Assembly (NCBI RefSeq): GCF_014204915.1
Contig: NZ_JACHMH010000001.1
Span: 3,121,001-3,185,000 of the forward strand
Length of the DNA stretch: 64,000 bases
Direction: 5' to 3'
Source of the DNA: Crossiella cryophila
GTDB taxonomy: Bacteria; Actinomycetota; Actinomycetes; Mycobacteriales; Pseudonocardiaceae
Each line of letters opens with the position of its first letter. Within the stretch, counting starts at the first letter, position 1. The position numbers and the translations under genes are program-made. Below the pieces are notes generated by a model. The model did not search any database and was not told where the DNA came from. It saw only the letters and a list, made by a program, of their open reading frames with translations. Below are positions 8,763 to 40,538 of the stretch, piece by piece.

Positions 8763-8854
8763 CGTCCCATAACGGCCAACACGCGCGGAGGGTTGAAACC
8801 CATCCCGCGCGTGTTGGCCGTTGTTGTACGGGGTGTTGGCCGTTGTGGGACGGG
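8763..8854. repeat. Inward-facing short repeat array, locus 1 (three units)
   Basis: One plus-oriented unit (8763, core AACGGCCAACAC) faces two minus-oriented units (core GTGTTGGCCGTT) across a spacer containing GCGCGGAGG and CGCGCG. The family consensus is CGT(A/C)C-NNN-AACGGCCAACAC, about 21 bp. The locus lies just after the subtilisin stop codon and could form a cruciform or terminator-like stem. Confidence 0.8.
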
Positions 8855-8888
8855 GCGGGGTGTGGGGTTGGGGGTGAACCCCCACGAC

Positions 8889-9053
8889 GAGGGTTCTCGT
8901 GTGTTCTCCGTACGGCCTGGAGCTTGCTGACCGCGCCCCGAGGAGCGGCCCCTGCAACACAAACCGCCGCCGACCCCGCCCATCGTGACGGGGGCCGCTC
9001 CTCGGGGTGTGGTTGGCTTGCGGAAGGCCGTGCGGAGAACACGCGAGCCCTCG
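8889..9053. repeat. Long imperfect palindrome of a second sequence type
   Basis: The left arm (from 8889) holds GAGGGTTCTCG, TGTTCTCCGTACGGCC and CCCCGAGGAGCGGCCCC. The right arm returns GGGGCCGCTCCTCGGGG, GGCCGTGCGGAGAACAC and GCGAGCCCTC, ending near 9053. The loop is about 35 nt. Sequence differs from the 290-bp element nearby. No open reading frame in it has plausible coding structure. It could be a mobile palindromic element or a structured RNA. Confidence 0.7.
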
Positions 9054-9212
9054 GAGCCACGCTGGAACCGGCCCCGGCAGCCTGCCCAGCCCCGCAACCT
9101 GCTCACCCCGGCTCTTGATCTGTGCACCCCCCTCCGGTGGTCTGCCCGGCCGGCGAGGCCATCTTTTCCGCTTTTGATCTTTGCGCTGTTGGCCTCTGTT
9201 GCTGAGGTACCC

Positions 9213-9509
9213 GAACAAAGATCAAGATCGTCCTCGCCGGACGGGCAGAAATCAAAGGATGGGGGGGAAAGTCAAAAACAAGAGCAAAGACAAAGAGCAG
9301 TGCTCGTACGGTTCCCCCATCCCCGTCAGCCCTCCGATACCAAACCACATCCCGGGCACGCAGACCGTTGCGGTTGAGAAGCTAGGGCGGCGGCAGGTTG
9401 CGGTCTGCGCACCCGGGATGTGGTGTGTCCTCTCCAGGCTGACGGGGATGGGGGAACCGCTCAGGTGTGGTTTGAAAAGCCACCCCGGCCGCCTGTTCGG
9501 GCTTCGCCC
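9213..9509 (+). repeat. Dispersed ~290-bp palindromic element, copy 1
   Basis: The same sequence recurs in inverted orientation at about 40172-40462. Internally, arms of about 60 nt (roughly 9308-9367 and 9399-9459) pair around GGTTCCCCCATCCCCGTCAG / CTGACGGGGATGGGGGAACC and ACATCCCGGG / CCCGGGATGT. The loop carries GAAGCTAGGGCGGCGGCAGG. An A-rich stretch (about 9245-9300) and CAAGATCGTCCTCGCCGGAC precede the palindrome. No transposase is encoded, so it resembles a MITE or a structured RNA. It has lower GC and different composition from the neighbouring genes. Confidence 0.8.
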
Positions 9510-9527
9510 AGCCGCAATCGCCCAAGG

Positions 9528-9688
9528 CGTACAAGAACGGCCAACGTGGTGTACGACAACGGCCAACACTGGGTACGACAACGGCCAACACGCGCGGAGG
9601 GGGTTCAAACCCGAACCCCTCCCGGCGTGTTGGCCGTTCTCGTACCGCGTGTTGGCCGTTGTTGTACGGGGTGTTGGCTGTTATGGGT
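9528..9688. repeat. Inward-facing short repeat array, locus 2 (six units)
   Basis: Three plus units (starting about 9528, 9550 and 9574) face three minus units (ending about 9651, 9673 and 9688). The central spacer itself folds: GGAGGGGGTT pairs with AACCCCTCC. The whole locus can therefore be drawn as one long hairpin. The last unit is degenerate (TGTTGGCTGTTATGGG) and overlaps the stop codon of the XRE-type gene. Confidence 0.85.
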
Positions 9689-10634
9689 GGAGGGGGATTC
9701 CGTCCCAGCGGATGCCGAAGGTGCCGGGGCCTACGTCTTGGGCTATGGCGTGTACTGAGCCGGAGCTGGAGACGGTCAGGGCTCGGCGGCGGGTGCCGGT
9801 GGGGGAGGCGAGGGGGCTGGTTACCTGGTAGGCGCGTTGGGGGAGGGCTTCTGGGTGGAAGCGGATTTCGGCCAGGTAGTCGCGGACGGGGCGGCGGAAT
9901 TTGCGGCAGAACAGGTCGCCCTGGCGGGGTGGGGCGCCTGCGGGGCTGATGACCTCGAATTCCATCATGACTGTTTCGCCTCGGCTCAGCGGTTCGTCGA
10001 AGAGGAGTTCGGCGGCCATCAGGCCGGTGTCGGGGTGGATGGCGAGGTTGCCCAGCCGGCAGTGGCGCAGGGGGACCAGGTCGGCGGCGGCGCCTCGGGG
10101 GTGGCGGGGGTCGTAGACGACCAGCCAGCGGTCGGCGCCGTCGGCGTCGGCTCGGAGGACCTGTTTGACTCGCAGGCTTTGCTGGCGGCCGTCGCGGCCT
10201 ACCTCGACCAGGTCGTGCTGGCTCAGGCGGGTCAGCAACTCGTCCGAGCTTGTGTCTACTGTGGACAGTAGTTCGGCCAGGCGGTCCCGGCGGGACCAGA
10301 GTTGTTCCACGGCGGGGGTGGCCACGGGGGCCATGGCGTGTCTGCCGCGGGGGCGGGGTGGGCCGACGAGCATCCGCAGCGCCGCCTCCGGCAGGCCGAG
10401 CACGGCCTCCAGGTGGCCGAGCACCACGAAGGAGTCGTCGCGTTCTGGTTGGCGGCGGCCGGATTGCCAGTTGCTCAGGGTGGCCACGCTGACGGTGGCG
10501 CCGCGGGCGCGTAATCGGTGCTGGATCCGGTCCAGGCTCAGGCCGCTGGCCTGGATCGCGGCGCGCAGGGCGGCCGGGAAGGGGCCGGTGCGCAGCAGGG
10601 TGGTCAGGTCGGGGGAGGAGATGGCCAGCGTCAT
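9681..10634 (-). CDS. XRE-like helix-turn-helix protein with actinobacterial C-terminal domain
   Basis: Probable DNA-binding regulator, 317 aa. Residues about 20-75 form a lambda-repressor-like HTH (LRAAIQASGLSLDRIQ, then VSVATLSNWQSGRRQPER as the recognition region). The remaining ~230 residues form a basic, mostly beta domain with no motif I can name; similar two-part proteins are frequent in Streptomyces and Pseudonocardiaceae. The ATG at 10634 lacks a good Shine-Dalgarno. The gene stands alone between the repeat block and the glycosidase pair, and its stop codon lies inside the final unit of repeat locus 2. Target genes are unknown. Confidence 0.8.
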   Translation of the reverse strand: MTLAISSPDLTTLLRTGPFPAALRAAIQASGLSLDRIQHRLRARGATVSVATLSNWQSGRRQPERDDSFVVLGHLEAVLGLPEAALRMLVGPPRPRGRHAMAPVATPAVEQLWSRRDRLAELLSTVDTSSDELLTRLSQHDLVEVGRDGRQQSLRVKQVLRADADGADRWLVVYDPRHPRGAAADLVPLRHCRLGNLAIHPDTGLMAAELLFDEPLSRGETVMMEFEVISPAGAPPRQGDLFCRKFRRPVRDYLAEIRFHPEALPQRAYQVTSPLASPTGTRRRALTVSSSGSVHAIAQDVGPGTFGIRWDGIPLHP

Positions 10635-10914
10635 GGAGTTGGTCCCGTTGGTCTCGTAAGGGCAGGGGCGAGACGTGGTGTACGGGATCAGCGACAGGCC
10701 GCGGAGGCCACCCGGACAAGGTCGATGTGACCCCGGGTGGTCAGGATTTCCTGCGGTGCCATGGGTTGGACGCTAGGGGCGGTGGATTTGCGCTGTCAAC
10801 GGCTCTCACGTGGTGGACAGTCCTCGACGCCTGGCCACGCCCCTGCTGGTTCAGGTGCGTAGCCAGGCTCGCCAGATGGCCCAGTGCGAGACCCCGTCAC
10901 CACTGGGAACCGCT

Positions 10915-10958
10915 CCAGGATTGCGGTTTCCCGTGGCGGCGGGAGACTGCAATCCTGG
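10915..10958 (-). terminator. Stem-loop downstream of the GH27 gene
   Basis: CCAGGATTGCGGTTTCCCG and CGGGAGACTGCAATCCTGG form 19-bp arms with two mismatches around a six-base loop. It lies about 60 bp past the GH27 stop. There is no T-run, so this is either an actinomycete-style terminator or an operator. The rest of 10635-11015 shows no gene. Confidence 0.5.
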
Positions 10959-11015
10959 GCGAAGGCACCGACGATCGATGCGGGCCATCAGAGTGATGCG
11001 GTTAGGCCATCAGCA

Positions 11016-12671
11016 TCAGGCGCAGGTGATCTTGGCGTCGGCCCAGTCCGCGTGGTCGTAGTTGATGTTGTCGCCGCCGTCGGTGACGACCAGCCGGAGT
11101 TGTTCGGCGTCACTGACATCGGCGGTGATCGCGGTGGCGCCGCCGGATCCGGTCAGCACCCCGGTGGCCGCCTTGCGGTTGCCGTCGGCGTGCACTTCGA
11201 AGACCACCGAGCCGTTCGCCCCGGCCACCTCGTCGTCGATGCCGACCTGGGCGGTGAAGGTGGAGCATTTGCGGCCCAGGTACATGGTGATCTCACTGCG
11301 CGCGTGCACGCCGATGCCCTTGGGGTAGGTGACCCCGCCGATGGTCAGCGGCTTGCCGTCGCCCGCGGGCTGGTTGCCGTTGCTGCGGTCCTTCTCCGCC
11401 GGGCCCCAGCCGTTGGCCACGCCCTGCCAGTCCAGGTCGGAGACCTGCGAGGTGCCCGCGGGCGGCGGGGTCTGCGCGCCGACCCGGCTGACCCGGTACA
11501 TCACGGTGCCGTGTGCGGGCACCGAGGCGCTGATCGCGCCGGTGCTGGTGCGGGTGGCCTTGGACCACAGGTCCTTGAGCCGGAAGTTGTTGCCGGACAG
11601 GCCGATCTCCGCGGCGGTGGTGTTGATGGTGGCGGCCGAGCCGTTCTCGTTGAACAGCGCCACCGCGACATCGCCGTTCGCGAGCGGCTTGGCGATCACG
11701 TAGGTGCCGCCGGATGCCTTGATCTGCTTGCCCTGCACGCCCTTGGCGTCCTGGTCGACGTCGATGACGTCCTTGTTGAGCAGGGTGTTGAAGTTCTCCT
11801 GGTTGACCTTGCGCAGGTCGGCGCCGATGAGCAGCGGCGCGGCCATGATGGCCCACAGGCTGAAGTGCGAGCGGTATTCGGTGGGGGTCATGCCGCCGTT
11901 GCCGACCTCGAGCATGTCCGGGTCGTTCCACGCGCCGGGCTTGGCGTACTGCGCGAGGGGCAGGTTCTTCTTGAAGATCTGCACCATTTTCGCCCAGGTG
12001 TCGTTGATGTCACCGGTGGTGCGCCACAGGTTTCCGGTGTCCTGGGCCCATTCCCACGGCTTGTTCTGGCCCCATTCGCAGATGGAGAACACGATGGGCC
12101 GCCCGGTGGCCTTGAGCGCGTCGCGCATCTTGCGGTAGCGCATCTTGGCGTCCACGCCCTGGTTGTTGCAGTTGTCGTACTTGAGGTAGTCCACGCCCCA
12201 GCTGGCGAAGAGTTTGGCGTCCTGTTCCTCGTGGTTGAGCCCGCCGGGGAAGCCCGCGGTGTTGCAGGTCTTGGTGCCGGCGCTGGTGTAGATGCCGAAC
12301 TTGAGGCCCTTGCTGTGCACGTAGTCGGCGACGAACTTGATGCCGCGCGGGAATCGCTTGGGGTCGGGTTCCAGGTTGCCCTGGGCGTTGCGGGTGGTCT
12401 TGGCCCAGCAGTCGTCGATGTTGACGTACTGGTAGCCGACGTCCTTGAGGCCCTTGTCCACGAAGATGTCGGCCATGTCCATGACCATCTTCTCGTTGAA
12501 CTCGGCCCGGCAGTGCGTGGTGTTCCAGTTGTTGAAGCCCATCGGGGGTGTGCGGGCCAGGCCGTTCTCCAGTGCCTCGGCCTGTGGCGCGGCCACCGTG
12601 GTCAGCACGAGTCCGGTCGCGGCGATCACGGTGGATGCCGCGGCCAGTACGGCCGTCAGTCTTCTGCGCAC
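11016..12671 (-). CDS. Secreted GH27 alpha-galactosidase with C-terminal NPCBM domain
   Basis: Extracellular enzyme releasing terminal alpha-D-galactose, 551 aa. The GTG at 12671 follows AAGGAG. Signal peptide is about 1-32. The GH27 (beta/alpha)8 barrel starts at LARTPPMGFNNWN; the nucleophile is D166 (YLKYDNC) and the acid/base is D221 (RTTGDINDTW), with WNDPDMLEVG at 248-257. A short beta domain follows. After a PPP linker near 405, a carbohydrate-binding NPCBM domain (DLDWQGVANGWGPAEKD, TYPKGIGVHARSEI) runs to the end. It lies about 46 bp downstream of the GH95-like gene on the same strand, so the two probably form one transcript. Confidence 0.95.
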   Translation of the reverse strand: MRRRLTAVLAAASTVIAATGLVLTTVAAPQAEALENGLARTPPMGFNNWNTTHCRAEFNEKMVMDMADIFVDKGLKDVGYQYVNIDDCWAKTTRNAQGNLEPDPKRFPRGIKFVADYVHSKGLKFGIYTSAGTKTCNTAGFPGGLNHEEQDAKLFASWGVDYLKYDNCNNQGVDAKMRYRKMRDALKATGRPIVFSICEWGQNKPWEWAQDTGNLWRTTGDINDTWAKMVQIFKKNLPLAQYAKPGAWNDPDMLEVGNGGMTPTEYRSHFSLWAIMAAPLLIGADLRKVNQENFNTLLNKDVIDVDQDAKGVQGKQIKASGGTYVIAKPLANGDVAVALFNENGSAATINTTAAEIGLSGNNFRLKDLWSKATRTSTGAISASVPAHGTVMYRVSRVGAQTPPPAGTSQVSDLDWQGVANGWGPAEKDRSNGNQPAGDGKPLTIGGVTYPKGIGVHARSEITMYLGRKCSTFTAQVGIDDEVAGANGSVVFEVHADGNRKAATGVLTGSGGATAITADVSDAEQLRLVVTDGGDNINYDHADWADAKITCA

Positions 12672-12717
12672 GATAACTCCTTGTCCGGCAACGGGTTTCG
12701 CGGCGGCGAGGTGAGTC

Positions 12718-15033
12718 TTAGGAGAGGCCCCAGGGTTTGCCGGGGTTGGAGATCCGGACCGGCTCGATGGTCAGCTCGGGCATGGCGCCCTGCGGGTAGA
12801 TCACCGCGGTGCCGCCGCGGGCCAGATCGAACTCGGCCACGCCGCCGGGCAGTTCGCGGAAGACGATCGGCGAGCCGTCCGGGCGGCTGACCTGGATCGG
12901 CCGCTGGATCCCGTGCCGCACCTTGCACGGCGAACCGGCCAAGCTGCGCACCGAGACCCACCGGGTGCGCCCGCCCTTGCGGACCGCGCTGACCTCGAAG
13001 GCGCCCTCGGTGAGGAACTTGTCCACGGTGACGTCGGCCCAGCCGCGCGGCACCGCCGGGAAGATCCGGATGAACTCGCCCCAGCTCTGCACGAGCATGT
13101 CGTGCAGGGACTGCGCCGCGGACAGCGGGGTTTCCACCACCGGGCTGCCCTCGCGGTACATGGTGTTCTCGGTGACCGGGTACCGGGTGCTGGGGTCGAA
13201 GAACTTCAGCAGGTAGGCCAATGCCTCGTCACCCCGGCCGAGTCCGGCCAGCATGGAGGCCGCGCCGGTGTAGCTGTAGCCGCGGTGCGCGCCCTGGATG
13301 GCGTGCCAGTGCTTGATGGAGGTGTCGATCAGCGTGCGTTGCGCGGGATCGTCGCCGGTGATCTCATACAGCGGGTAGACCATCAGCAGGTGCGAGTAGT
13401 GCCGGTGCGACTTCTCGTACGGCACTCCGGCGCCGATCATGAACCCGTTCTTGTCGGTGGGGTAGGGCACCAGATCACGCAGCACCTGCCGCCACTTCGA
13501 GGCCAGCGGATCGTTCTTGCCGAGTTTGTCGTTGGCGTACAACAGGGTCCGGCAGCCCCAGCGGATCAGCGCGAGGTCGTAGTTGCAGTCCGGCGCGTTG
13601 CCGTACTCGGGGGAGTGGGTTTCCGGCAGGTGCAGCTTGCCGTCGGTGCCGGGCTTGAGGAAGTGCAGGTAGTAGTTGATCGATCGGCGCAGGATCGGGA
13701 AGAGCGTGTCCCGCAGGATGGCGATGTCCATGGTGTGCCGGTAGGACAGCCACACGTTGTGCAGGGTCCAGGTCAGGTTGCCGGTCTCCGGGCTGCCGCC
13801 GCCGTCGCCGGGACGCGCCACGTAGCTGCCCTTGAGCGTGGTCCGGTCCGTGCTGCGGCCCACCCCGGCGGAGTCGTGCTGGTACTCCGGCCGGACGTTC
13901 TTGATCAGCTGCGCCTGGTTGTCCCGCAGCGTGCTGGTGATGGCGTCCAGTTCGACGTGGTTGCTGCCGTGGATGAGCCAGTACTCCAGCTGCACGTTGA
14001 GGTTCCACCACACCGCGGGCCAGCCGGTGGGCTCGAACCAGGGCCCGCAGGTGGCCATCACGGTGCCGCCGGCCCTGGTGCCGGTGGCGGTCTTGTAGAG
14101 CTGGATCCACCAGAAGCTCTGCAGCCGCTGGTCGGGCAGGGAGACGAAGCTCTTGCGGTAGAAGGCGTGCCACCATTCGCGGTGACTGGCCACCAGCGCG
14201 GCCACGCCGGTCTCGGCGGCGTCCCTGACCAGCTTGAGCGCCTCGGCCTCGGCGGTGCGGGCCGGGAAGCTGTGCGCCACCGCGAGCAGCAGGGTGTGCT
14301 CGCCGGAGGTCCAGGCCGGGTCGCGGTAGGCGGTGGTGGTCTGCCCGCCGGCCAGCATCTCCTGCCGCACCACCTGCTCCGCGCCGTTGGTCGCGCGCAC
14401 CGGTTCCGGGTTGTGCGTGTAGCCGCTGGGCGGGTCGGGCCGGGTGCTGACCGCGGGTTCGGGGTGGAAGACCCAGCGCACCCGCTCACCGCCGCTGGGG
14501 GTCACCTGGGCCAGCAGCACCGAGCGGGTGGTGTGGATGAACGCCCGCAGCTTCAGCGTGCCCGCCGAGGTGGTGATGGTGCCGGTGAACTCGCCGTGCC
14601 AGAGGTCCAGCCGCCAGTCCACGCCGGTGATCGTGCCGGCGGGTTCCAGGGTCAGGTGGCCGACCGGCAGCCGGCACACGCCGTGCCCGCTGCCGAACTG
14701 CGGCCGGTGGTCCTGCACCTCGGCGTGCTGCACGCTGAACCGGATCGCGTTCTTGCCGGGTTCCTTGCGGATGATCGACCCGAGTCGCCCGTCACCGAGG
14801 AAGGGCCCCTGCCACCACTCGGCAGGCAGCTTCTTCCACACCGGATCCTGCGCGCCGAGGAACCTCGCCCAGTCCACCTCGGACAGTCCGGCGATGCCCG
14901 GTTCCGGGGGCTCCGCCGGGACCGGGGCCGCCGGCGCGGCGGTGGCCGTGGGCGCGGCGGCGCCGACCACCCCGGCCGCTGCGGTGGCGGCCAGGAAGGT
15001 CCGACGAGAAAGATCCCATCTCTGCTCATCCAT
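12718..15033 (-). CDS. Tat-exported GH95-like glycoside hydrolase (fucosidase/galactosidase family)
   Basis: Secreted glycosidase, 771 aa. It begins with a twin-arginine signal (LSRRTFLAATAAAGVVGAA), implying export of the folded protein. An N-terminal beta-sandwich region (about 55-290, including AEWWQGPFLGDGRLGS) leads into an (alpha/alpha)6 barrel (about 300-640) and a C-terminal beta domain, the layout of GH95. GH95 enzymes act on alpha-1,2-L-fucosides or alpha-L-galactosides; I cannot tell which from sequence alone. PETHSPEYGNAPDCNYD and SHRHYSHLLMVYPL are the conserved active-site stretches I rely on. The ATG at 15033 follows AGAGG. It is first gene of a pair with the GH27 enzyme. Confidence 0.8.
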   Translation of the reverse strand: MDEQRWDLSRRTFLAATAAAGVVGAAAPTATAAPAAPVPAEPPEPGIAGLSEVDWARFLGAQDPVWKKLPAEWWQGPFLGDGRLGSIIRKEPGKNAIRFSVQHAEVQDHRPQFGSGHGVCRLPVGHLTLEPAGTITGVDWRLDLWHGEFTGTITTSAGTLKLRAFIHTTRSVLLAQVTPSGGERVRWVFHPEPAVSTRPDPPSGYTHNPEPVRATNGAEQVVRQEMLAGGQTTTAYRDPAWTSGEHTLLLAVAHSFPARTAEAEALKLVRDAAETGVAALVASHREWWHAFYRKSFVSLPDQRLQSFWWIQLYKTATGTRAGGTVMATCGPWFEPTGWPAVWWNLNVQLEYWLIHGSNHVELDAITSTLRDNQAQLIKNVRPEYQHDSAGVGRSTDRTTLKGSYVARPGDGGGSPETGNLTWTLHNVWLSYRHTMDIAILRDTLFPILRRSINYYLHFLKPGTDGKLHLPETHSPEYGNAPDCNYDLALIRWGCRTLLYANDKLGKNDPLASKWRQVLRDLVPYPTDKNGFMIGAGVPYEKSHRHYSHLLMVYPLYEITGDDPAQRTLIDTSIKHWHAIQGAHRGYSYTGAASMLAGLGRGDEALAYLLKFFDPSTRYPVTENTMYREGSPVVETPLSAAQSLHDMLVQSWGEFIRIFPAVPRGWADVTVDKFLTEGAFEVSAVRKGGRTRWVSVRSLAGSPCKVRHGIQRPIQVSRPDGSPIVFRELPGGVAEFDLARGGTAVIYPQGAMPELTIEPVRISNPGKPWGLS

Positions 15034-15184
15034 CGATAAGCCTCTTTCGCTTCCATGGATGGGCCGATGGCGGCTTTTCGACCCCGATGTCGTGCACGAA
15101 GCTAGGAGCGCGGGCCCCGGCGCGTCAATGCTCCGACAAGGTAAGAGATCGGATGTATAGGTTTTCGAATCCGGCTACCGCGGA

Positions 15185-15220
15185 CAAAAAAGACCCCCGG
15201 CGCGTATCGCACCGGGGGCC
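15185..15220 (-). terminator. Rho-independent terminator of the DUF349 gene
   Basis: On the minus strand, GGCCCCCGGTGCG-atac-CGCCGGGGGTC is followed by TTTTTTG. It sits about 15-50 bp after the DUF349 stop. Classic stem plus T-run. Confidence 0.85.
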
Positions 15221-15233
15221 TGGTTCTCGCTGG

Positions 15234-16553: not shown

Positions 16554-16765
16554 CGCCGGCTCCTCCTTGACTGCCCGCCTCGCTCGCCCGCAGCTGAATA
16601 CGCGGGCGCCCCGCAGCAGCGGGGCCAGTGCACGTCATCGAGGACCGGCACTCGCGGTCCTCGACGCCGCATTCAAACAGGTCAGGGCCGCCGGTGGTAC
16701 TCCTGGGCCAGGTTGTGACCTTGCTTTTGCCTACGGTTGCCCCCGCGCGAGCCCCACTAGCCTTG

Positions 16766-17470
16766 ATGCTCGTGATCGCCCGAGTCGCCTTCGCGCCCCA
16801 TCCACCCCTGTTGGTACCCGAACTGGTGACCGGAGCCGCCACCGAGACGGAACCCCTGCGGCGGGCCTGCCGCGCGGCCGCCGCCACCCTCACCCGAATG
16901 GCCGACCACTGGTGGGTGATAGCCGTTGACCAGGCCGGACCCAAGATCATCGGCCCGGAGGCCCGCGGCACCTTCGCCGGGTTCGGCGTGGACCTCGAGG
17001 TCGACCTGGGCCGCGGCCAGGGCCCGGCCGACCCGGAGTTGCCGGTCCCGGCGCTGATCGCGGGCTGGCTGCGTGCGCACGCGGGCGCACGCTCGGTGAC
17101 CGTCCAACTGCTGCCCACGGATCTTGATCCGGCCGCGTGCCTAGATCTGGGGACAACGCTGGCCGCGGGACCGGAGCGCACCGGGCTGCTGGTCCTCGCC
17201 GACTCCTCGGCCCGGCTGACCCCACGCTCCCCGGTGCCGCCGGATCCGCGCGCCCCGGACTTCGACGCCCGGATCTCCAGCGCGCTGGCCACCGGCGACC
17301 CGGCCCCGCTGACCGCACTGGACCCGGCGCTGGCGGTCGAGCTGTGGGCGCACGGCCGGGCCGCCTACCAGGTCGCCGGGGCCGCCACCGCGGGCCGGGA
17401 CTGGCAGGCCGAGCTGCTCTACTCCGACTGCCCCTACGGCGTCGGCTACCACGTGGCCACCTGGACCTGA
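16766..17470 (+). CDS. Class III extradiol dioxygenase subunit B-like protein (Rv2728c-like)
   Basis: Conserved actinobacterial protein of about 234 aa with the LigB/MEMO-like fold start VAFAPHPPLLVPELVTG. Family members usually bind a metal with His residues near this loop, but no reaction is established for this branch. Upstream there is no Shine-Dalgarno. TAGCCT at 16758-16763 could be a -10 box, and then the GTG at 16772 would suit a leaderless start; the ATG at 16766 is kept here. It precedes miaA, as in mycobacteria (Rv2728c then Rv2727c). Repeat locus 3 begins at its stop codon. Confidence 0.78.
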   Translation: MLVIARVAFAPHPPLLVPELVTGAATETEPLRRACRAAAATLTRMADHWWVIAVDQAGPKIIGPEARGTFAGFGVDLEVDLGRGQGPADPELPVPALIAGWLRAHAGARSVTVQLLPTDLDPAACLDLGTTLAAGPERTGLLVLADSSARLTPRSPVPPDPRAPDFDARISSALATGDPAPLTALDPALAVELWAHGRAAYQVAGAATAGRDWQAELLYSDCPYGVGYHVATWT

Positions 17471-17618
17471 CCCACAACGGCCAACACACCGTACGAAAAC
17501 GGCCAACACACGGTACGAAAACGGCCAACACTCCGACCGGCTTGCCCGCTCCCCGCGTGTTGGCCGAACTCGTACGGTGTGTTGGCTGAAGTGGGACGGT
17601 GTGTTGGCCGTTGTGGGG
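17471..17618. repeat. Inward-facing short repeat array, locus 3 (six units)
   Basis: Three plus units (starting near 17471, 17493 and 17514; core AACGGCCAACAC) face three minus units (near 17556, 17578 and 17600). The spacer is about 22 bp and C-rich. The array fills the entire gap between the dioxygenase-like gene and miaA. Its last unit reaches the putative -35 region of miaA. Confidence 0.85.
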
Positions 17619-17623
17619 GCTCG

Positions 17624-17638
17624 TAGGCTGGTTGGGTG
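17624..17638 (+). promoter_or_regulatory. Putative leaderless promoter of miaA
   Basis: TAGGCT at 17624-17629 lies six bases before the GTG at 17636, with no Shine-Dalgarno between. This fits transcription starting at or next to the start codon. The -35 region would fall within the last repeat unit of locus 3. Confidence 0.5.
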
Positions 17639-18538: not shown

Positions 18539-18542
18539 ACCG

Positions 18543-19765: not shown

Positions 19766-19783
19766 GACTCTCCTTCCGGTGTG

Positions 19784-19805: not shown

Positions 19806-19841
19806 TCCCCGGCAGAGAGTAGCTCACTTAATGTCCTCCGC

Positions 19842-32769: not shown

Positions 32770-32776
32770 GGCGGGG

Positions 32777-34195
32777 ATGCCGCGACGGACCCGCAGGACC
32801 GCCCGCGTCTCCTGGCGTTCCGCCCTCACCGCCTGGCTGAGCAGGCCACTGGCCGACTTCCACCTGGTGCTGGCGGTCTTCGGCCTGCTCACCATCCTCG
32901 GCCTGGTCATGGTGCTCTCCGCCTCGATCCCGGACAGCCTGAACAAGTTCAACTCCTCGTTCGTGATCTTCGCCAAGCAGCTGGCCTACGTCTGCGTCGG
33001 CCTGGTGCTGTTCTGGATCGCGCTGCGGCTACCGGCCAGAACCCTGCGCAGACTCAGCATCCCGGCCATGGTGGTCAGCCTGCTGCTGCTCATCCTGGTG
33101 CTGGTGCCGGGCATCGGCGCCGAGCTGAACAAGGCGCGCAGCTGGTTCAAGATCGGCCCGCTGTCCTTCCAGCCGGTGGAACCGGCCAAGGTCGCGCTGG
33201 TGCTCTGGGGCGCGCACGTGCTGGCCACCAAACGCGCCATGCTGCACCAGTGGCGGCATCTGCTGGTGCCGCTGGTGCCCGCGGCGCTGATGATGTTCGC
33301 CCTGCTCATGCTGCAACCCGACCTCGGCTCCACCATCACCCTCGCGGTGATCGTGCTGTCCCTGCTCTGGTTCGCCGGCGCGCCGCTGCGGCTGTTCGGC
33401 GTGATCGCCCTCGGCGCGGTCACCGGCGCCATCGTGCTGGCCATGACCGCGGCCTACCGGCTGGAACGGCTGACCTCCTTCTTCAACCCCGACGCCGACC
33501 CGACCGCCTCCTACCAGTCCAAGCAGGCGCTCTACGCCCTTGGCGACGGCGGCATCTTCGGCGTGGGGCTCGGCCAGGGCAAGGCCAAGTGGAGCTATCT
33601 GCCCAACGTGCACAACGACTTCATCTTCGCCGTGGTCGGCGAGGAGCTCGGCCTGATCGGCGCGTTCCTGGTGCTGGTGCTCTTCGGCCTGCTCGCCTAC
33701 GTCGGCCTGCGCATCTCCCAGCGCAACACCGACCCGTGGATCCGGCTGGTCTCCTCCACGCTGACCGTGTGGCTGGTGGCCCAGGCCGCGATCAACATCG
33801 GCTACGTGGTCGGGCTGCTCCCGGTCACCGGCCTGACCTTGCCGATGATCTCCTCCGGTGGCACCTCGGCCGCGGTGACCATGCTGGTCTTCGGCATCCT
33901 GGCCAACAACGCCCGGCACGAGCCGGAGGCCGTGGCCGCGTTGCGCACCCTCGGCCCCGGCCGGGTCGGCAAACTGCTCCGGCTGCCCGCGCCAGAGCCC
34001 TACCGGCCACCGGCCAAACGCAAGCCGGTGCGCCCGTCCACCCCACCCCGCCAGGCCGGTCGCCCGGTGCGCGCGGCCGCCCACCAGGCCGCCTCGGCCC
34101 AGGACGACCGGCGGCGCACCCGGCGCAGCACCGGCAGCCCCGATCCCCGGCGCAGAGCCGGCTACCCGAACAGCCGCGAGGGCCGGATCCGCTGA
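32777..34195 (+). CDS. ftsW: Septal SEDS glycosyltransferase FtsW
   Basis: Polytopic SEDS peptidoglycan polymerase acting with a class B PBP at the septum, 472 aa. About ten membrane helices start near residue 30. KARSWFKIGPLSFQPVEPAK contains the conserved loop, QPDLGST precedes the catalytic Asp region, and LPMISSGGTS is near the end. The C-terminal ~75 residues are a basic, proline/arginine-rich cytoplasmic tail, long as in many actinobacterial FtsW proteins. The ATG at 32777 has a weak GAGG upstream. Confidence 0.96.
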   Translation: MPRRTRRTARVSWRSALTAWLSRPLADFHLVLAVFGLLTILGLVMVLSASIPDSLNKFNSSFVIFAKQLAYVCVGLVLFWIALRLPARTLRRLSIPAMVVSLLLLILVLVPGIGAELNKARSWFKIGPLSFQPVEPAKVALVLWGAHVLATKRAMLHQWRHLLVPLVPAALMMFALLMLQPDLGSTITLAVIVLSLLWFAGAPLRLFGVIALGAVTGAIVLAMTAAYRLERLTSFFNPDADPTASYQSKQALYALGDGGIFGVGLGQGKAKWSYLPNVHNDFIFAVVGEELGLIGAFLVLVLFGLLAYVGLRISQRNTDPWIRLVSSTLTVWLVAQAAINIGYVVGLLPVTGLTLPMISSGGTSAAVTMLVFGILANNARHEPEAVAALRTLGPGRVGKLLRLPAPEPYRPPAKRKPVRPSTPPRQAGRPVRAAAHQAASAQDDRRRTRRSTGSPDPRRRAGYPNSREGRIR

Positions 34196-34323
34196 TCCCC
34201 GTGCCTGGGCGCGCTGCGTAGCGCCCCGGGCGCACGCAGTGTCACAGGCGGATTTTGTTACCCTCGCGGCCATCCGATCCCCCCATGACGATGCCTGGGA
34301 ATCCGGGCTGGAGGACTTCCGCA

Positions 34324-35427
34324 GTGTCTGGTGAAACCGTCCGAAGTGGACCCTGTGTCGTCGTCGCCGGTGGCGGCACCGCCGGGCACATCGAGCCCGC
34401 GCTGGCCCTGGCCGACGCGGTGCGCCGGATCCGCCCCGACGTGCGGGTCATCGCGCTGGGCACCGAACGGGGGCTGGAGAGCAAGATCGTGCCGGCCCGC
34501 GGGTACCAGCTCGAGCTGATCCCGCCGGTGCCGATGCCGCGCAAGCCCAGCCCGGAACTGCTCCGGCTGCCGCTGAAGGTCAGGGACGCGGTCCGCCGCA
34601 CCCGCGAGGTCTTCGAGCGGCACGGCGCGGACGTGGTGGTCGGCTTCGGCGGCTACGTGGCGCTGCCCGCCTACCTGGCCGCCCGCGGCCGGGTGCCGAT
34701 CGTGGTGCACGAGGCCAACGCGCGCACCGGCCTGGCCAACAAGGTCGGCGCCCGCTTCGCCGCCGCGGTGGCCGCCGCCGTGCCCGGCTCCGGCCTGCCC
34801 GGCGCCAGGGTCATCGGCATCCCGCTGCGCCAGTCCATCACCACCCTGGACCGGGCCGCGCTGCGCGATGAGGCCCGCCGCTACTTCGGCCTGCACCCCA
34901 CCGCCCCCTGCCTGCTGGTGGTCGGTGGCTCCCAGGGCGCGCGCTCGATCAACTCCGCGGTCTCGGCCGCGGCCGGGCAGTTCGCCGCGGCCGGCATCGG
35001 CGTGCTGCACGCGCACGGGCCGAAGAACACCGTGGCCGTGCAGCAGGTGCCCTACGCCCCGGCCTACGTGCCAGTGCCCTACCTGGAGCGGATGGACCTG
35101 GCCTACGCCGCCGCGGACGCGGTGCTCTGCCGCTCCGGCGCGATGACCGTGGCCGAGGTCTCCGCGCTCGGGCTGCCCGCGGTGTTCGTGCCGCTGCCGC
35201 ACGGCAACGGCGAGCAGGCGCTCAACGCCAACCCGGTGGTGGACAACGGCGGCGGCATCATCATCGCCGACGGCGAGCTGACCGCGCAGCGGATCGGCGA
35301 GCAGGTCATCCCGATCCTGCGCGACCCGGAGCGGCTGGCCAAGATGGGCGCGGCCGCCCAGTCCGGCGGGCACCGCGAGGCCGATGTGGTGCTGGCCCGC
35401 ATGGTGCTGGACCTGGTGCGCCGGTGA
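34324..35427 (+). CDS. murG: UDP-GlcNAc:lipid I N-acetylglucosaminyltransferase MurG
   Basis: Membrane-associated GT28 enzyme that makes lipid II, 367 aa. The GTG at 34324 is chosen because GGAGG lies about 10 bases upstream and it precedes [20 protein letters not shown]; an ATG at 34255 would add 23 residues. [21 protein letters not shown] and [10 protein letters not shown] are the family motifs. The 128-bp gap after ftsW is the only real break in the mur run, so murG may have its own promoter. It overlaps murC by 4 bp. Confidence 0.96.
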
Positions 35428-36857
35428 GCGCCCCCGAGGTCGGCCCGCTCGACGATCGCCTGGCCCGCACCCACCTGGTGGGCATCGGCGGCGCCGGGAT
35501 GAGCGGCATCGCCCGGATCCTGCTGGCCCGCGGCGCCCGGGTGTCCGGCTCCGACGCCAAGGACTCGCCAACCGTGCTCGCGCTGCGCGCCCAGGGCGCG
35601 GAGATCAGCGCCGGGCACGCGGGGGAGAACCTGGACCAGCTCGACGGCGGCCCCACCGCGGTGGTGGTCTCCACCGCGATCCGGCCGGACAACCCGGAGC
35701 TGGTGGCCGCGCGGGAACGCGGGATCACCGTGCTGCGCCGGGCCGAGGCGCTGGGCGCGCTGATGGCCGGGCACCGGGTGGCCTGCATCGCGGGCACCCA
35801 CGGCAAGACCTCCACCACCTCCATGCTCACCGTGGCCCTGCAGCACTGCAGGCTGGACCCCTCCTTCGCCATCGGCGGGGACCTCAACGAGTCCGGCGCC
35901 AACGCCCACCACGGCAGCGGCGGCGCCTTCGTGGCCGAGGCCGATGAGTCCGACGGCTCGTTCCTGGTGTTCAGCCCGTCGGTCGCGGTGGTCACCAACG
36001 TGGAGGCCGACCACCTGGACCACCACGGCACGGTCGAGGCATACGTCGCGGTCTTCGACGAGTTCGTCGGCCGGATCGAACCCGGCGGCGTGCTCATCGC
36101 CAACGCCGACGACCCCGGTTCGGCCGCACTGGCCGACCGCGCCGCCGCCCAGGGCGTGCGGGTGCTGCGCTACGGCCGGGCCGAGGGCGCGGACGCGCAC
36201 CTGCTCGCGCACCGGCCCACCGCGGCCGGTGGCGAGGCGGAGCTGGAGCTGAACGGGGAGAAGGTCACCGTCACGGTGGCCGTGCCCGGCGAGCACATGG
36301 CGGGCAACGCGGTCGCCGCGCTGCTGGCCGGACTCGAACTGGGCGCGCCGCTGACCGGTCTGCTGGAGGGGCTGGCCGCCTTCGGTGGCGTGCGCCGCCG
36401 GTTCGAGTTCAAGGGCCAGGCCGCCGGGGTGCGGGTCTACGACGACTACGCGCACCACCCCACCGAGGTCGACGCCCAGCTGCGCGCCGCCCGTCCGGTG
36501 GTCGGTGGCACCGGCAGGCTGGTCACCGTGTTCCAGCCACACCTGTACTCGCGCACCAAGGCCTTCTGCGCCGAGTTCGCCCAGGCGCTGGCCCTGGCCG
36601 ACGAGGTCGTGGTGCTGGACGTCTACGGGGCACGTGAGGAGCCGCAACCGGGCATCACCGGCGAGCTGGTGGCCGAGAACGTGCCGCTGCCCCAGGGCCG
36701 GGTGCACTACGAGTCCTCCTTCAGCCACGCGCCCAAGCTGGTGGCGGGCCTGGTCCGGCCGGGTGACCTGGTGATCACCATGGGCGCCGGCGATGTCACC
36801 ATGCTCGGCCCGGAGATCCTGAGCGAGCTGGCCGGCGGCGAGGACGCCGGACGATGA
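35424..36857 (+). CDS. murC: UDP-N-acetylmuramate:L-alanine ligase MurC
   Basis: First amino-acid-adding enzyme of the peptide stem, 477 aa. GTG start overlaps the murG stop. The N-terminal motif is [18 protein letters not shown], the ATP loop is [18 protein letters not shown] is the metal site, and [15 protein letters not shown] begins the C-terminal domain. Its stop overlaps ftsQ (ATGA). Confidence 0.97.
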
Positions 36858-37633
36858 GCGCGACGCCGCAGCGCGGCAGGCGGTACACCGACCCGCGCCG
36901 GGCGGCCCGGCCGCGCCCGGCGTCGGTGCGCGGCCGCCGTCCGGCCGCGCGGCGGCGGGTGGCCAAACTCCGCAGGCTGCTGCGGCCCTGGGTGCTCATG
37001 TCCGCGGTGACGGTGCTGGTCGGGCTGGGGTACGTGCTCTATTACACCGGGCTGTTCGCGGTCAGGGAGGTGCGGTTCGAGGGTCTCAAGGCGCTCAGCG
37101 CCGAGGACATCCGGACCGCGGCCAACGTGCCCGACGGCACCCCGCTGCTGCAGGTGGACACCGAGGAGGTGGCGGCCAGGATCGGCGCCGTGCCCAGGGT
37201 GTTCACCGTGCGGGTGGAGCGCTCCTTCCCGAGCAGCCTGGTGGTCACCGTGGACGAGCGCAGCCCGGTGGCGGTCTTCGAGGGCGCGGACGGCCCGCAG
37301 CTGGTGGACAGCACCGGCCGGGCCTACGCCACCGTGCCCAAACCACCGGACGGCCTGCCCGCGCTGAAGGTGCGCAGCGCCGCGCCGGATGATCCGGCCG
37401 CCAAGGCCGCGGTGGACGTGCTGGCCGCGGTGCCGGAGAAACTGCGGCCGGAGGTGCTGGAGGTCTTCGCCGAGGTGCCCGGCGACGTCCGGCTGCGGCT
37501 GACCGGCGGCCGCGAGGTCCGCTGGGGCAGCACCGCCGACTCCGACCGCAAGGCCCTCGTGCTGGAGCCGCTGCTGGGCAGGCCGGGGAAAATATTCAAC
37601 ATCTCCAGCCCCGACCTGCCTACTGTCGTCTGA
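36854..37633 (+). CDS. ftsQ: Divisome protein FtsQ
   Basis: Bitopic division protein, 259 aa. An arginine-rich cytoplasmic tail (1-45) is followed by one membrane helix (about 46-66). The POTRA domain begins [19 protein letters not shown], and the FtsQ/DivIB domain follows. It recruits FtsL/FtsB and other late proteins. It is coupled to murC by a 4-bp overlap and to the DinB gene by a TGATG junction. Confidence 0.94.
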
Positions 37634-38148
37634 TGACCGAGCTGAAGATCGACACCAGACCCGAACCACCACTGGCCGCCGACGAACGCGACACCCTCAC
37701 CGGCTTCCTGGACTTCCTGCGCGCCACGGTGGTCCTCAAGGCCACCGGACTGTCCGAAGTGGACGCTCGGAGATCGCTGATCCCCAGCTCACCGCTGATG
37801 ACCGTGGTCGGACTGCTCAGCCACCTGCGCTGGGTGGAGTGGGCCTGGTTCAGCAACCGCGTCGACGACCAGCCCGGCGAACCGCCCTGGTACGGCGGCG
37901 ACGAGGAGGCGGAGTTCCGGGTCCCGGAGGGGCGGCCGGTGGCCGCGGTGATCGCCGAGTACGAGCGGGAATGCGCGGCCAGCCGGGAGATCCTGGCCCG
38001 AAAGGACCTGTCGGCGACATTCGCTCATCCGCGACTCGGTACCGTATCCGTGCGCTGGGTGCTGACCCACATGATCGAGGAGACCGGACGCCATGCCGGT
38101 CACCTCGACCTCATCCGCGAGCTGCTCGACGGTGTGACCGGAGAGTGA
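37633..38148 (+). CDS. DinB/DUF664 family protein inserted between ftsQ and ftsZ
   Basis: Four-helix-bundle protein of 171 aa of the DinB/YfiT-like fold. Candidate metal ligands are His in LLSHLRWVEW and the pair in HMIEETGRHAGHLD. Many actinobacterial members are mycothiol-dependent S-transferases or detoxification enzymes; the substrate here is unknown. The ATG shares one base with the ftsQ stop, so it is translated with the division genes. I know of no division role, and ftsQ and ftsZ are normally adjacent. Confidence 0.85.
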   Translation: MTELKIDTRPEPPLAADERDTLTGFLDFLRATVVLKATGLSEVDARRSLIPSSPLMTVVGLLSHLRWVEWAWFSNRVDDQPGEPPWYGGDEEAEFRVPEGRPVAAVIAEYERECAASREILARKDLSATFAHPRLGTVSVRWVLTHMIEETGRHAGHLDLIRELLDGVTGE

Positions 38149-38266
38149 CGGACAGTGGGGACGTGCCCACGGCTTTCCGCCGTGGGTTACGTGTGCGGGT
38201 TCACTCGGCGTGGCTGCTGGACGGAGAACACCGACGGTGCATAACGTCCCGTTCGATGGTCAGGGG

Positions 38267-38300
38267 TTGACATAACTCTCAACCGACAGTTGAGGCTGAG
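38267..38300 (+). promoter_or_regulatory. ftsZ upstream promoter-like element and inverted repeat
   Basis: TTGACA at 38267-38272 is a consensus -35, but the expected -10 is weak. It overlaps CTCAAC-cgaca-GTTGAG (38278-38294), a perfect 6-bp inverted repeat followed by GCTGAGGGTTT. Comparable CTCAAC/GTTGAG sequences occur before ftsZ in other actinobacteria as I recall, suggesting a conserved control site. The leader to the ftsZ ATG is about 100 nt. Confidence 0.45.
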
Positions 38301-38393
38301 GGTTTCGAGACGGGGCTGGCGCCGGGTGGCGACGGTCCAGACCCGCGAGCCACAGCACAGGAACACACAGCCACGATCAGGAAGGCGGACCCG

Positions 38394-39752
38394 ATGACGC
38401 CCCCGCACAACTACCTCGCGGTGATCAAGGTCGTCGGAATCGGCGGCGGCGGCGTCAACGCGGTGAACCGCATGATCGAGGTTGGGCTCAAGGGAGTCGA
38501 GTTCATCGCGGTGAACACCGACGCCCAGGCACTGCTGATGTCCGACGCCGACGTGAAGCTCGACATCGGCCGCGAGTTGACCCGCGGTCTCGGTGCGGGC
38601 GCCAACCCCGAGGTCGGCCAGCGTGCCGCCGAGGACCACCGCGAAGAGATCGAAGAGGTCATCAAGGGCGCCGACATGGTCTTCGTGACCGCGGGCGAGG
38701 GCGGTGGCACGGGCACCGGCGGTGCGCCGGTGGTCGCCTCGATCGCCCGCAAGCTCGGCGCGCTGACCATCGGCGTGGTCACCCGCCCGTTCTCCTTCGA
38801 GGGCAAGCGCAGGGCGAAGCAGGCCGAGGACGGCATCCAGGCACTGCGCAACGAGTGCGACACCTTGATCGTCATCCCGAACGACCGGCTGCTCCAGCTC
38901 GGTGACATCGGCGTCAGCCTGATGGACGCCTTCCGCTCCGCCGACGAGGTCCTGCTCTCCGGTGTGCAGGGCATCACCGACCTGATCACCACCCCCGGTC
39001 TGATCAACCTGGACTTCGCCGACGTCAAGAGCGTCATGTCCGGTGCGGGCAGCGCCCTGATGGGCATCGGCTCGGCCCGCGGCGAGGGCCGCGCCGTCCA
39101 GGCAGCGGGCAAGGCGATCAACTCGCCGCTGCTGGAAGCCTCCATGGAAGGCGCGCACGGCGTGCTGCTCTCCATCGCGGGCGGCTCCGACCTGGGCCTG
39201 TTCGAGATCAACGAGGCGGCCTCGCTGGTCCAGGAAGCCGCCCACCCCGAAGCCAACATCATCTTCGGCACGGTGATCGACGACTCCCTCGGCGACGAGG
39301 TCCGCGTGACGGTAATAGCGGCTGGGTTCGACGGCGGCACCCCCACGCACAAGAAGCTGGAACCCGCCCCGGTCACCTCCCGTGCCCCCGTGGCCCCCGC
39401 CACCGCGGGCCAACTCGGCGGCACCCCCCAGCAGCAGCCCGAGCAGCCCCAGCAGCAGCCCGCGCCGCAACCCCAGCCCACCTACCAGCCCGCGCCGCAG
39501 CCGCACACGAGCTACCAGCCCGCCCCGCAGCCGCAGCCCGCGCCCCAGCCGGCGGTCCAGCAACCCCCGGCCCCCCAGCCCCACCAGCACCAGCCGACCA
39601 ACCCCATGAACCCCCTCCCCCCACGCACCGGCGTACACGGCCTCCCCCCGGTCAACTCCGGCCTAGGCGGCGGCCTCCCGTCCCGCTCAGTCCCGGTAAC
39701 CGACGAGCCCGACGACGACGAGGTCGACGTCCCCCCCTTCATGCGCCGCTAA
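38394..39752 (+). CDS. ftsZ: Cell division GTPase FtsZ
   Basis: Tubulin-like GTPase that forms the Z-ring, 452 aa. The GTP signature GGGTGTG lies at 103-109 and the T7 loop is in [11 protein letters not shown]. After about residue 320 comes an unusually long proline/glutamine-rich linker ([19 protein letters not shown] and similar repeats), ending in the conserved C-terminal peptide [11 protein letters not shown] that binds SepF and other partners. The ATG follows a GGAAGG about 10 bp upstream. A strong terminator follows. Confidence 0.97.
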
Positions 39753-39765
39753 CCCACCCAACCCC

Positions 39766-39793
39766 AAAAGGGCCGCCCCCGGGCGGCCCTTTT
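39766..39793 (+). terminator. Terminator after ftsZ
   Basis: AAAAGGGCCGCCC-ccg-GGGCGGCCCTTTT is a near-perfect palindrome with flanking A and T runs, so it can work in both directions. It lies 13 bp past the ftsZ stop. Confidence 0.92.
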
Positions 39794-39807
39794 GCTTGCC
39801 AGCGAAC

Positions 39808-40086
39808 GGCGTGTTGGCCGTTATGGACGGACGGGGAAGCCCCTCACGACAGCCGGGCAGTTCCGGACCCGGAAGACAGCCGAGTCAGAGGCAGGACCCG
39901 CCCACCCGGCGTACGACAACCGCCAACCCGGCGTACAAGAACGGCCAACACCCGGTACGAGAACGGCCAACACACCGTCCCAGAACGGCCAACACGCCGG
40001 GAGCTTGAAACCCCAGCCCGCGTGTTGGCCGCTTTGGTACGGAGTGTTGGCCGTTCTGGGACACCACGTTGGCTGTTGTGGGACGC
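39808..40086. repeat. Inward-facing short repeat array, locus 4 (about eight units)
   Basis: One isolated minus unit is at 39808-39832. From 39909, four plus units (39909, 39930, 39953 and 39976) face three minus units (about 40020, 40042 and 40064). The spacer is GGGAGCTTGAAACCCCAGCC-like. The outer units diverge (AACCGCCAACCC, ACGTTGGCTGTT). This is the densest array in the window and follows the ftsZ terminator. Confidence 0.85.
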
Positions 40087-40171
40087 CGGGCGGGCGGAGC
40101 CCGGAGCGGCGAGCGTTGGGGGCAGGCGGGCGAAGCCCGGGAACGCTGCGGCTAGGCGGTTCCGACTCGCC

Positions 40172-40462
40172 GCGACCGGGCGGAGCCCGAGCACAAGCAG
40201 CCGGGGTGGCTTTTCAACAGTCCCCGAGCGGTTCCCCCATCCCCGTCAGCCTGGAGAGGACACACCGCATCCCGGGTGCGCAGACCGCAACCTGCCGCCG
40301 CCCTAGCTTCCCAACCGCACGGTCTGCGTGCCCGGGATGTGGTTTGGTATCGGAAGGCTGACGGGGATGGGGGAACCGTACGAGCACTGCTCTCTGCTCT
40401 TGACTTTCCCCCCATCCTTTGATTTCTGCCCGTCCGGCGAGGACGCTCTTGATCTTCGCTCT
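40172..40462 (-). repeat. Dispersed ~290-bp palindromic element, copy 2
   Basis: This is the inverted counterpart of the element at 9213-9509. Both keep the A-rich lead-in, CTCGCCGGACGGGCAGAAAT, the paired GGTTCCCCCATCCCCGTCAG arms, the GAAGCTAGGGCGGCGGCAGG loop and the trailing GAAAAGCCACCCCGGC. Small indels differ (about 12 bases fewer in the A-rich part). No ORF is conserved between the copies, which argues for DNA or RNA structure rather than protein. Confidence 0.8.
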
Positions 40463-40471
40463 TGCCACAAC

Positions 40472-40538
40472 CCGTCCCACAACCGCCAACACCCCGTACG
40501 ACAACGGCCAACACGGCGTACAAGAACGGCCAACACTC
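40472..40538. repeat. Short repeat array, locus 5 (three plus units)
   Basis: Three plus-oriented units start near 40472, 40493 and 40514, with cores AACCGCCAACAC, AACGGCCAACAC and AACGGCCAACAC. No facing minus units are present. The array ends about 40 bp before pgeF and lies immediately beside copy 2 of the 290-bp element. Confidence 0.8.

What the first reader, a model, noticed from the sequence alone, without database searches (positions are those of the whole stretch)
8763..40538. Family of ~21-bp inward-facing repeat units at five intergenic loci
About 26 copies of CGT(A/C)C-NNN-AACGGCCAACAC occur only between genes (8763, 9528, 17471, 39808-40086, 40472). In four of five loci, one to four plus units face two or three minus units across a short spacer that can itself fold. 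The period is about 21-22 bp, two helical turns. They are not direct-repeat CRISPRs and no nuclease genes are close. The spacing and symmetry fit either a cooperative DNA-binding array, a long RNA stem acting as a double terminator, or an REP/MITE family. I cannot name a described family.
Basis: partly seen in the sequence, partly recalled or inferred. Interest (0 to 1): 0.8.

Follow-up and report, generated by a model that had tools for sequence, protein, structure and literature searches.

The report
Repeat arrays missing near replication origin
In actinobacteria called Crossiella, many small clusters of a 22-letter DNA site sit just after genes, often where two genes run towards each other, and in two genomes they are missing from the zone around the start point of chromosome copying, which suggests an undescribed set of protein docking sites or a new kind of dispersed repeat.

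Summary
In detail: 26 units of a 22-bp-period repeat at the stated places, 0.5 expected. They belong to a family in Crossiella (genus). The exact 12-bp core occurs 803 times in this genome. A looser tandem pair is found in 4 of 5 Crossiella genomes and 0 of 394 others. In a 2.06-Mb sample, 41 of 72 arrays lie within 25 bp of a stop codon (random 4.5) and 34 of 72 between convergent genes (random 10.7). Facing arms do not covary in this genome. In a distant congener, GTAC and GGCCAACACG hold while the bases between vary, which fits a two-part protein-binding site better than an RNA stem. In the two genomes with complete hit lists, the largest array-free gap (about 1.3-1.5 and 1.8 Mb) contains dnaA. 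A third shows the same, but 3 of its 58 pairs are unplaced. Best reading: binding arrays of an unidentified chromosome-organising protein. They resemble REPs/BIMEs in habit but fail REP criteria. A selfish repeat is nearly as likely. No binder, transposase or experiment is known.

The parts
8763..8852 (.). Array A: one plus unit facing two minus units, 8 bp after the stop of a subtilase-family gene (7582-8754 +)
9528..9690 (.). Array B: three plus units facing three minus units; outer minus unit overlaps the stop of the minus-strand gene 9681-10634 (no Pfam match)
   Evidence: fold z -14.1 for 9550-9668
17468..17620 (.). Array C: three plus units facing three minus units between gene 16766-17470 (stop overlapped) and an IPP transferase gene (miaA); no array in G002, G003, G004, variant units in G001 (by eye)
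39811..39830 (-). Single minus unit just after a hairpin with T-rich tail (39765-39794) behind ftsZ
39910..40085 (.). Array D: four plus units facing three minus units in the ftsZ-pgeF interval
40473..40536 (+). Array E: three plus units, 41 bp before the predicted start of pgeF; plus units stand at the matching place in G001 and G002
8853..9527 (-). ~680-bp palindromic core element lying between arrays A and B (separate repeat family, adjoining)
   Evidence: double changes in its first hairpin
40172..40456 (+). Short (~290-bp) form of the same core element between arrays D and E

Best explanation
The units are sequence-specific DNA-binding sites. The consensus is GTAC, about six loosely constrained bases, then GGCCAACAC, repeated every 22 bp, about two helical turns. 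They form short arrays, often mirrored about a centre of nearly fixed length. An unidentified Crossiella protein probably binds them cooperatively at gene ends, often between converging genes, where transcription piles up positive supercoils, and so marks or constrains the chromosome outside the origin region. Shown: sequence, spacing, placement, spread in the genus, lack of arm covariation in G000, variable gap bases in a distant species, and a gap around dnaA in two genomes with complete lists. Inferred: the protein, binding, cooperativity, and any effect on topology, domain structure or read-through. The arrays also turn over like interspersed repeats, so function and mobility may both be true.
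For: 26 units; 803 exact cores, 1 control match; same-strand steps 22 bp in 154 and 21 bp in 11 of 175; inward spacers 25-28 bp in 21 of 27; outward 16-17 or 38-39 bp in 13 of 14; 41 of 72 arrays within 25 bp of a stop (random 4.5, largest 10 in 151 placements); 34 of 72 convergent (random 10.7, largest 18); 10 of 11 G002 arrays and 5 of 7 G001 arrays convergent, 10 and 5 within 25 bp of a stop. (G000): partner units in facing arms match at 3.21 of 6 variable positions, non-partners 3.36, random 3.46. G003: at positions the pattern left free, CACG after GGCCAA holds in 44 of 44 pairs copied and 3 of 4 more, while five gap positions have entropy 0.97-1.92 bits; in G000 and G002 (complete lists) the largest gap contains dnaA; four gap stretches (64 kb) hold 6 predicted convergent intervals over 60 bp and no unit.
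Against: No binding protein was identified; only three protein families (Y1_Tnp, DnaA, DDE_Tnp_1) were searched genome-wide. G004, 98.2% identical to G002 over 10 genes, has no tandem pair and six hits with 2-3 mismatches: either arrays are dispensable or the draft assembly lost them. In the few congener arrays partners match a little more than non-partners when inward (3.55 against 3.00, 11 and 22 comparisons) and a little less when outward (3.36 against 3.65). The G003 gap rests on an incomplete list (55 of 58 exact pairs placed) and would not be unusual alone (P 0.10). Same-position units of different G000 arrays are slightly more alike than others (1 of 200 shuffles reached the value), as copying of whole modules would give. 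In G003, 2 of 9 distinct arrays are convergent, 4 tandem, 2 divergent, 1 at an edge, and 3 of 9 within 25 bp of a stop. Fixed sequence within a genome can come from copying as well as selection.
Confidence: 0.4

Rival explanations
1. A selfish or neutral interspersed repeat (MITE- or BIME-like) moved in trans by an unknown enzyme. It persists at gene 3' ends because insertions elsewhere are removed, and is missing near oriC through insertion bias or stronger selection there.
For: Tandem pairs of the G000 core type number 310, 31, 44, 0, 0 in G000-G004. One interval (locus C) is occupied in G000 and short and empty in G002, G003, G004. Different layouts stand in the same interval in different species. 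Slight whole-module resemblance. Arrays absent in G004. The core element also avoids the origin: of 40 scored copies of 113 candidates in G000, none lies between 0.123 and 1.666 Mb. Published REPs have the same gene-end habit (PMC3733652, passages).
Against: No candidate mobiliser: the only Y1_Tnp match in G000 has an in-frame stop beside a gene that looks TnpB-like by eye, and G002, G003 and G004 have none; one weak DDE_Tnp_1 match; other transposase families were not searched. No target duplication seen at locus C. In G003 the two conserved halves hold while gap bases vary between units of one array. No match in the viral contigs (exact pattern), plasmids or phages searched.
Confidence: 0.37
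2. A bidirectional RNA-hairpin terminator between converging genes: transcripts from either side fold into a long stem.
For: The four mirrored window arrays fold far better than shuffles (z -7.3, -14.1, -12.3, -8.1) and arrays sit right after stop codons. Only 2 of 57 array-adjacent stops have an ordinary T-tailed hairpin within 90 bp, against 41 of 515 others. Inward arrays of congeners show a small partner excess.
Against: The terminator difference is not significant (P 0.30). Arms do not covary in G000, whereas the neighbouring core element does (12 of 44 pairs with kept double changes). 32 of 72 arrays have one orientation only, and the one folded (array E) has no special fold (z 0.4). ftsZ has an ordinary hairpin terminator before its array.
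Confidence: 0.16

Closest known systems
REP / BIME elements, GTAG/CGTC REP superfamilies (PMC3733652 and PMC6379681, passages seen)
   Same: High copy, extragenic, often between convergent genes and next to 3' ends, head-to-head and tail-to-tail pairs; BIME-2 is cut by gyrase in E. coli.
   Different: The unit is not itself a palindromic stem, has no GTAG tag, stands in 22-bp tandem runs, has no RAYT found, and leaves a gap at the origin in two genomes. The string actinobacteri does not occur in the main text of PMC3733652.
Chromosome-domain binding sites such as matS/MatP, Noc sites and SlmA sites (recalled; only listings seen)
   Same: Sequence-specific sites spread over the chromosome but absent from, or confined to, one large domain.
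   Different: As recalled, those mark or avoid the terminus, are single sites, and have a known protein; these avoid the origin, are mirrored tandem arrays, and no protein is known.
BOX elements of pneumococcus and MITEs (recalled)
   Same: Modular, intergenic, non-coding, mobile-looking.
   Different: No shared transposon ends and no target duplication found here; sequence not compared.
Iterons and other tandem protein-binding arrays (recalled)
   Same: ~22-bp direct repeats with helical phasing.
   Different: Many chromosomal loci, mirrored layout, no replication gene among the six window genes next to arrays.

Membership tests
REP / BIME | Each unit is a 20-40-nt palindrome able to form its own hairpin | tested here: not met
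   Unit is asymmetric; the hairpin arises between facing units; the plus-only array E has no special fold
REP / BIME | GTAG or CGTC unpaired tag at one end of a palindromic stem | tested here: not met
   G000 units mostly begin CGTAC or GGTAC, a minority CGTCC; G003 units carry GTAC, some GTGC; no palindromic stem behind them
REP / BIME | Associated RAYT tyrosine transposase (GTAG class) | tested here: not met
   2 of 5 Crossiella genomes have a Y1_Tnp match; the G000 one has an in-frame stop and a TnpB-like neighbour (by eye); none in G002, G003, G004. The G001 matches were not looked at further
REP / BIME | Extragenic, enriched between convergent genes and near 3' ends | tested here: met
   for G000; for G001 and G002; weaker in G003
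Intrinsic bidirectional terminator | Stem pairing maintained by selection (covariation) | tested here: not met
   27 inward and 14 outward G000 arrays, no excess match between partners; small inward excess in 6 congener arrays
Intrinsic bidirectional terminator | Transcript ends at the element | not testable with these tools
   No RNA data
MITE | Terminal inverted repeats shared with an autonomous element, and target-site duplication | tested here: inconclusive
   No autonomous element noticed in the stretches read; one occupied/empty comparison, no duplication seen by eye
CRISPR | Direct repeats separated by unique spacers, cas genes | tested here: not met
   Same-strand steps are 21-22 bp with no spacer; cas genes were looked for only among six window genes
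Chromosome-domain sites (MatP/Noc/SlmA-like logic) | Sites excluded from or confined to one replication-defined domain | tested here: met
   G000 and G002, complete hit lists: largest gap contains dnaA. G003: same on a list with 3 of 58 pairs unplaced
Chromosome-domain sites (MatP/Noc/SlmA-like logic) | A dedicated DNA-binding protein | not tested
Rfam families | Match above gathering score | tested here: not met
   only a SAM-IV riboswitch elsewhere in the window; only sub-threshold miRNA-hairpin matches in 8700-9720

The most novel reading that the evidence does not exclude
A Crossiella-specific chromosome-organisation system: a dedicated protein binds mirrored 22-bp site arrays at the ends of genes over most of the chromosome but not in the 1.3-1.8 Mb around oriC, so that array-free DNA defines an origin domain, the reverse of the terminus-marking (MatP) and terminus-avoiding (Noc, SlmA) schemes.
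Probability: 0.25. Interest if true: 0.82.

Novelty: new variant of a known kind. Interest (0 to 1): 0.58.

Why it matters
If arrays are protein-bound they would be a dense, easily read map of a chromosome-structuring system in actinobacteria, and the gap at the origin would make its purpose directly testable. If they are selfish, they are an interspersed repeat family of 22-bp tandem sites without the usual REP tag or RAYT, which reshapes the same intervals differently in each species.

Tried and rejected
RAYT as mobiliser: one Y1_Tnp match in G000 with an in-frame stop beside a TnpB-like gene, none in G002, G003 or G004, so not a required partner. IS control for the origin gap with DDE_Tnp_1: one weak match in the genome, so it says nothing about whether mobile DNA in general avoids the origin. 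RNA stem: no arm covariation in G000. Known RNA families: none for the arrays. Spread beyond the genus: 0 of 394 other genomes of the family and order, exact looser pair. Viral contigs, plasmids, phages: no match. Literature: searches listed no title on Crossiella repeats or this motif; I saw listings only, apart from passages of PMC3733652 and PMC6379681.

Weak points. The G000 sample (2.064 Mb: window plus 100 stretches of 20 kb) is a grid from 1.73 to 9.62 Mb and does not cover the origin zone; the gap rests on the complete list of a rarer pair pattern (93 of 93 shown), on the capped 12-mer list, which runs by position to 1.94 Mb on both strands, and on four stretches of 16 kb. The probabilities for an empty span at dnaA use spans chosen after seeing the data and a uniform null. 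One search showed only 51 of the 58 exact G003 pairs counted; the held stretches give four more, so three are unplaced and the one-mismatch list may be short too. Genes come from my own simple caller, so starts and short genes are approximate; two of the six convergent intervals it gave in the gap are over 2 kb and probably hold missed genes. In one search, 2 of 72 arrays had no assigned interval. Units with a matrix score under 14 were not counted, so array patterns miss weak units (array C counts as +++--). G003 units were picked by a pattern that fixes most constrained positions; only the free positions support the claim. One search counted two G003 arrays twice; one search corrects this. 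Several congener stretches were chosen because they held arrays, which biases. The absence in G004 may partly be a draft-assembly effect: contig 50 begins about 20 bp from the locus A/B gene stop, though the ftsZ-pgeF interval is continuous there and lacks the array.
Full report
What is in the window. A search with CGTMCNNNAACGGCCAACAC, up to three mismatches, gives 26 matches; 0.52 are expected and at most 4 occur in 100 shuffles. They form arrays A (8763-8852), B (9528-9690), C (17468-17620), D (39910-40085) and E (40473-40536) plus a single unit at 39811. The period is 22 bp. A, B, C and D are plus units facing minus units; E is plus only. Array A starts 8 bp after the stop of a subtilase-family gene, B overlaps the stop of the gene facing it, C overlaps the stop of the gene before miaA, and D and E lie between ftsZ and pgeF.

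Whose genome. A pgeF search in named genomes gives Crossiella sp. S99.2 as nearest, 97%. The genome G000 is one contig of 10.06 Mb. Four congeners are held: G001 (its contig 39 has 810,412 bases, the length of the named S99.2 contig), G002, G003, G004. Over 10 genes G000 is 96.4% identical to G001, 92.0% to G002 and to G004, 86.5% to G003; G002 and G004 are 98.2% identical.

How many and where. The 12-bp core AACGGCCAACAC occurs 405 + 398 times in G000, control 0 + 1. A looser tandem pair, GTAC-N6-GGCCAA-N6-GTAC-N6-GGCCAA, occurs 327, 126, 93, 58 and 0 times in G000, G001, G002, G003 and G004, and in 0 of 394 other genomes of the family and order. In 2.064 Mb of G000 there are 72 arrays. Same-strand steps are 22 bp in 154 of 175 and 21 bp in 11. 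Of the arrays, 27 hold an inward junction, 14 an outward one (one holds both), and 32 have one orientation only. Inward spacers are 25-28 bp in 21 of 27, outward ones 16-17 or 38-39 bp in 13 of 14.

Place relative to genes. 285 of 288 units are intergenic. 41 of 72 arrays lie within 25 bp of a stop codon, against 4.5 on average and 10 at most in 151 random placements in intergenic space; 34 of 72 lie between convergent genes, against 10.7 and at most 18. By distinct intervals, 22 convergent, 23 tandem and 3 divergent carry arrays, out of 83, 403 and 240 intervals over 60 bp. In G002 10 of 11 and in G001 5 of 7 arrays are convergent; in G003 2 of 9 distinct ones are, 4 being tandem, 2 divergent and 1 at an edge (which removes two double counts).

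Sequence or pairing? If the mirrored arms served as RNA or cruciform stems, facing units should match at the variable positions. In G000 they do not: partners 3.21 of 6, non-partners 3.36, random 3.46 (27 inward arrays); for 14 outward arrays 2.09, 2.85 and 3.02. In the few congener arrays the inward values are 3.55, 3.00 and 3.19, the outward 3.36, 3.65 and 3.55, 6 arrays each. In G003 the unit reads GTAC-N5-CGGCCAACACG. Among 44 exact pairs, the positions that the pattern left free after GGCCAA are CACG in 44 of 44, while five gap positions vary with entropy 0.97 to 1.92 bits. Of four exact pairs that the list did not show, three have CACG and one CATG. Thirty-five units from 9 arrays agree. 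The adjoining core element is the built-in contrast: in 22 copies from G000, G001, G002 and G004, 12 of 44 pairs of its first hairpin keep pairing through double changes. So the neighbour behaves like a hairpin and the arrays behave like sites. The mirrored window arrays do fold well (z -7.3 to -14.1); array E does not (z 0.4).

Terminator test. An ordinary hairpin with a T-rich tail follows 2 of 57 array-adjacent stops and 41 of 515 others (P 0.30), so no firm replacement of terminators is seen. ftsZ has such a terminator just before its array.

Comparison between species. At locus A/B, G000 has arrays around a core element, G001 minus and plus units around part of it, G002 one inward array. 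At ftsZ-pgeF, G000, G001, G002 and G003 have arrays with different layouts; G004 has what looks like half a unit. At locus C, G000 has an inward array, G001 variant units seen by eye, and G002, G003 and G004 a short interval without any. Of the orthologous intervals compared by program, 116 comparisons had no array on either side; 13 had one on at least one side: both in 6, G000 only in 5, the relative only in 2. Some relatives' stretches had been chosen for holding arrays, so this leans towards sharing.

The origin gap. dnaA lies at 1.153 Mb in G000, at 1.4 kb in G002 and at 4.843 Mb in G003. In G000 the complete list of 93 pairs of one pattern leaves a largest gap of 1533 kb (398,773 to 1,931,570); the 12-mer list narrows it to 1340 kb (to 1,738,839). 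In G002 the complete list of 93 pairs leaves 1847 kb (8,171,466 to 848,315 across the start). Both contain dnaA. A gap that large anywhere has P 0.0004 to 0.0017 (G000) and 0.0001 (G002) under uniform placement. In G003 the list leaves 1325 kb (3,877,646 to 5,202,584) with dnaA inside, P 0.10, but 3 of 58 exact pairs are unplaced, so this is only a hint. Four stretches in the G000 gap (64 kb) have 6 predicted convergent intervals over 60 bp and no unit, against 83 such intervals in 2.064 Mb elsewhere, so lack of places is not the reason. One core-element copy lies at 1.666 Mb, inside the unit gap. In G000 arrays are also thin in the three outermost tenths towards the terminus (7 of 73 loci), not so in G002 (18 of 57). 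The uniform null ignores regional gene content, and no IS control was possible.

Reading. A conserved two-part sequence, helical pitch, narrow central spacings and variable gap bases point to cooperative binding of a protein. The gap at the origin points to a role, or a constraint, at the scale of the chromosome. A selfish repeat that is purged near oriC and outside gene ends is nearly as likely and would explain the species differences and the missing arrays in G004. I keep these at 0.40 and 0.37, with the RNA terminator at 0.16.

What is not shown: any bound protein, any effect on transcription or topology, any mobility in real time.

Noticed in passing
window 8853-9527 and 40172-40456; L085:3981-4660; L128:15339-16014: A second repeat family: a ~680-bp element of stacked imperfect palindromes (short form ~290 bp). 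A 261-bp probe gives 108 matches in G000 from 40 scored of 113 candidates (palindromic copies match twice), 12 in G001, 45 in G002, 36 in G004 and 2 short ones in G003. Of 18 copies or fragments in the G000 sample, 11 have 22-bp units within 150 bp on both sides; the 4 G002 and 7 G004 copies scanned have none near. Its first hairpin covaries and keeps asymmetric internal loops.
   Followed up: partly
L315:7993-8157, L083:4725-4870, L065:5938-6063: Another intergenic repeat of up to 146 bp, 90-92% identical (a third, weaker match in L084), one copy between convergent genes inside the origin gap.
   Followed up: no
window 54028-54142 (+): SAM-IV riboswitch, 114 bits, upstream of gene 54178-55560.
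   Followed up: no
L252 (G000:C1 about 6.80 Mb): Tyrosine-transposase (Y1_Tnp) match with an in-frame stop, beside a gene that looks TnpB-like by eye (IS200/IS605 type, recalled).
   Followed up: partly
G004 against G002: Two genomes 98.2% identical over 10 genes differ completely in exact tandem pairs (0 against 93); real loss or draft-assembly effect.
   Followed up: partly
G000:C1 4.8-7.4 Mb: Arrays are thin around the presumed terminus of G000 but not of G002.
   Followed up: no
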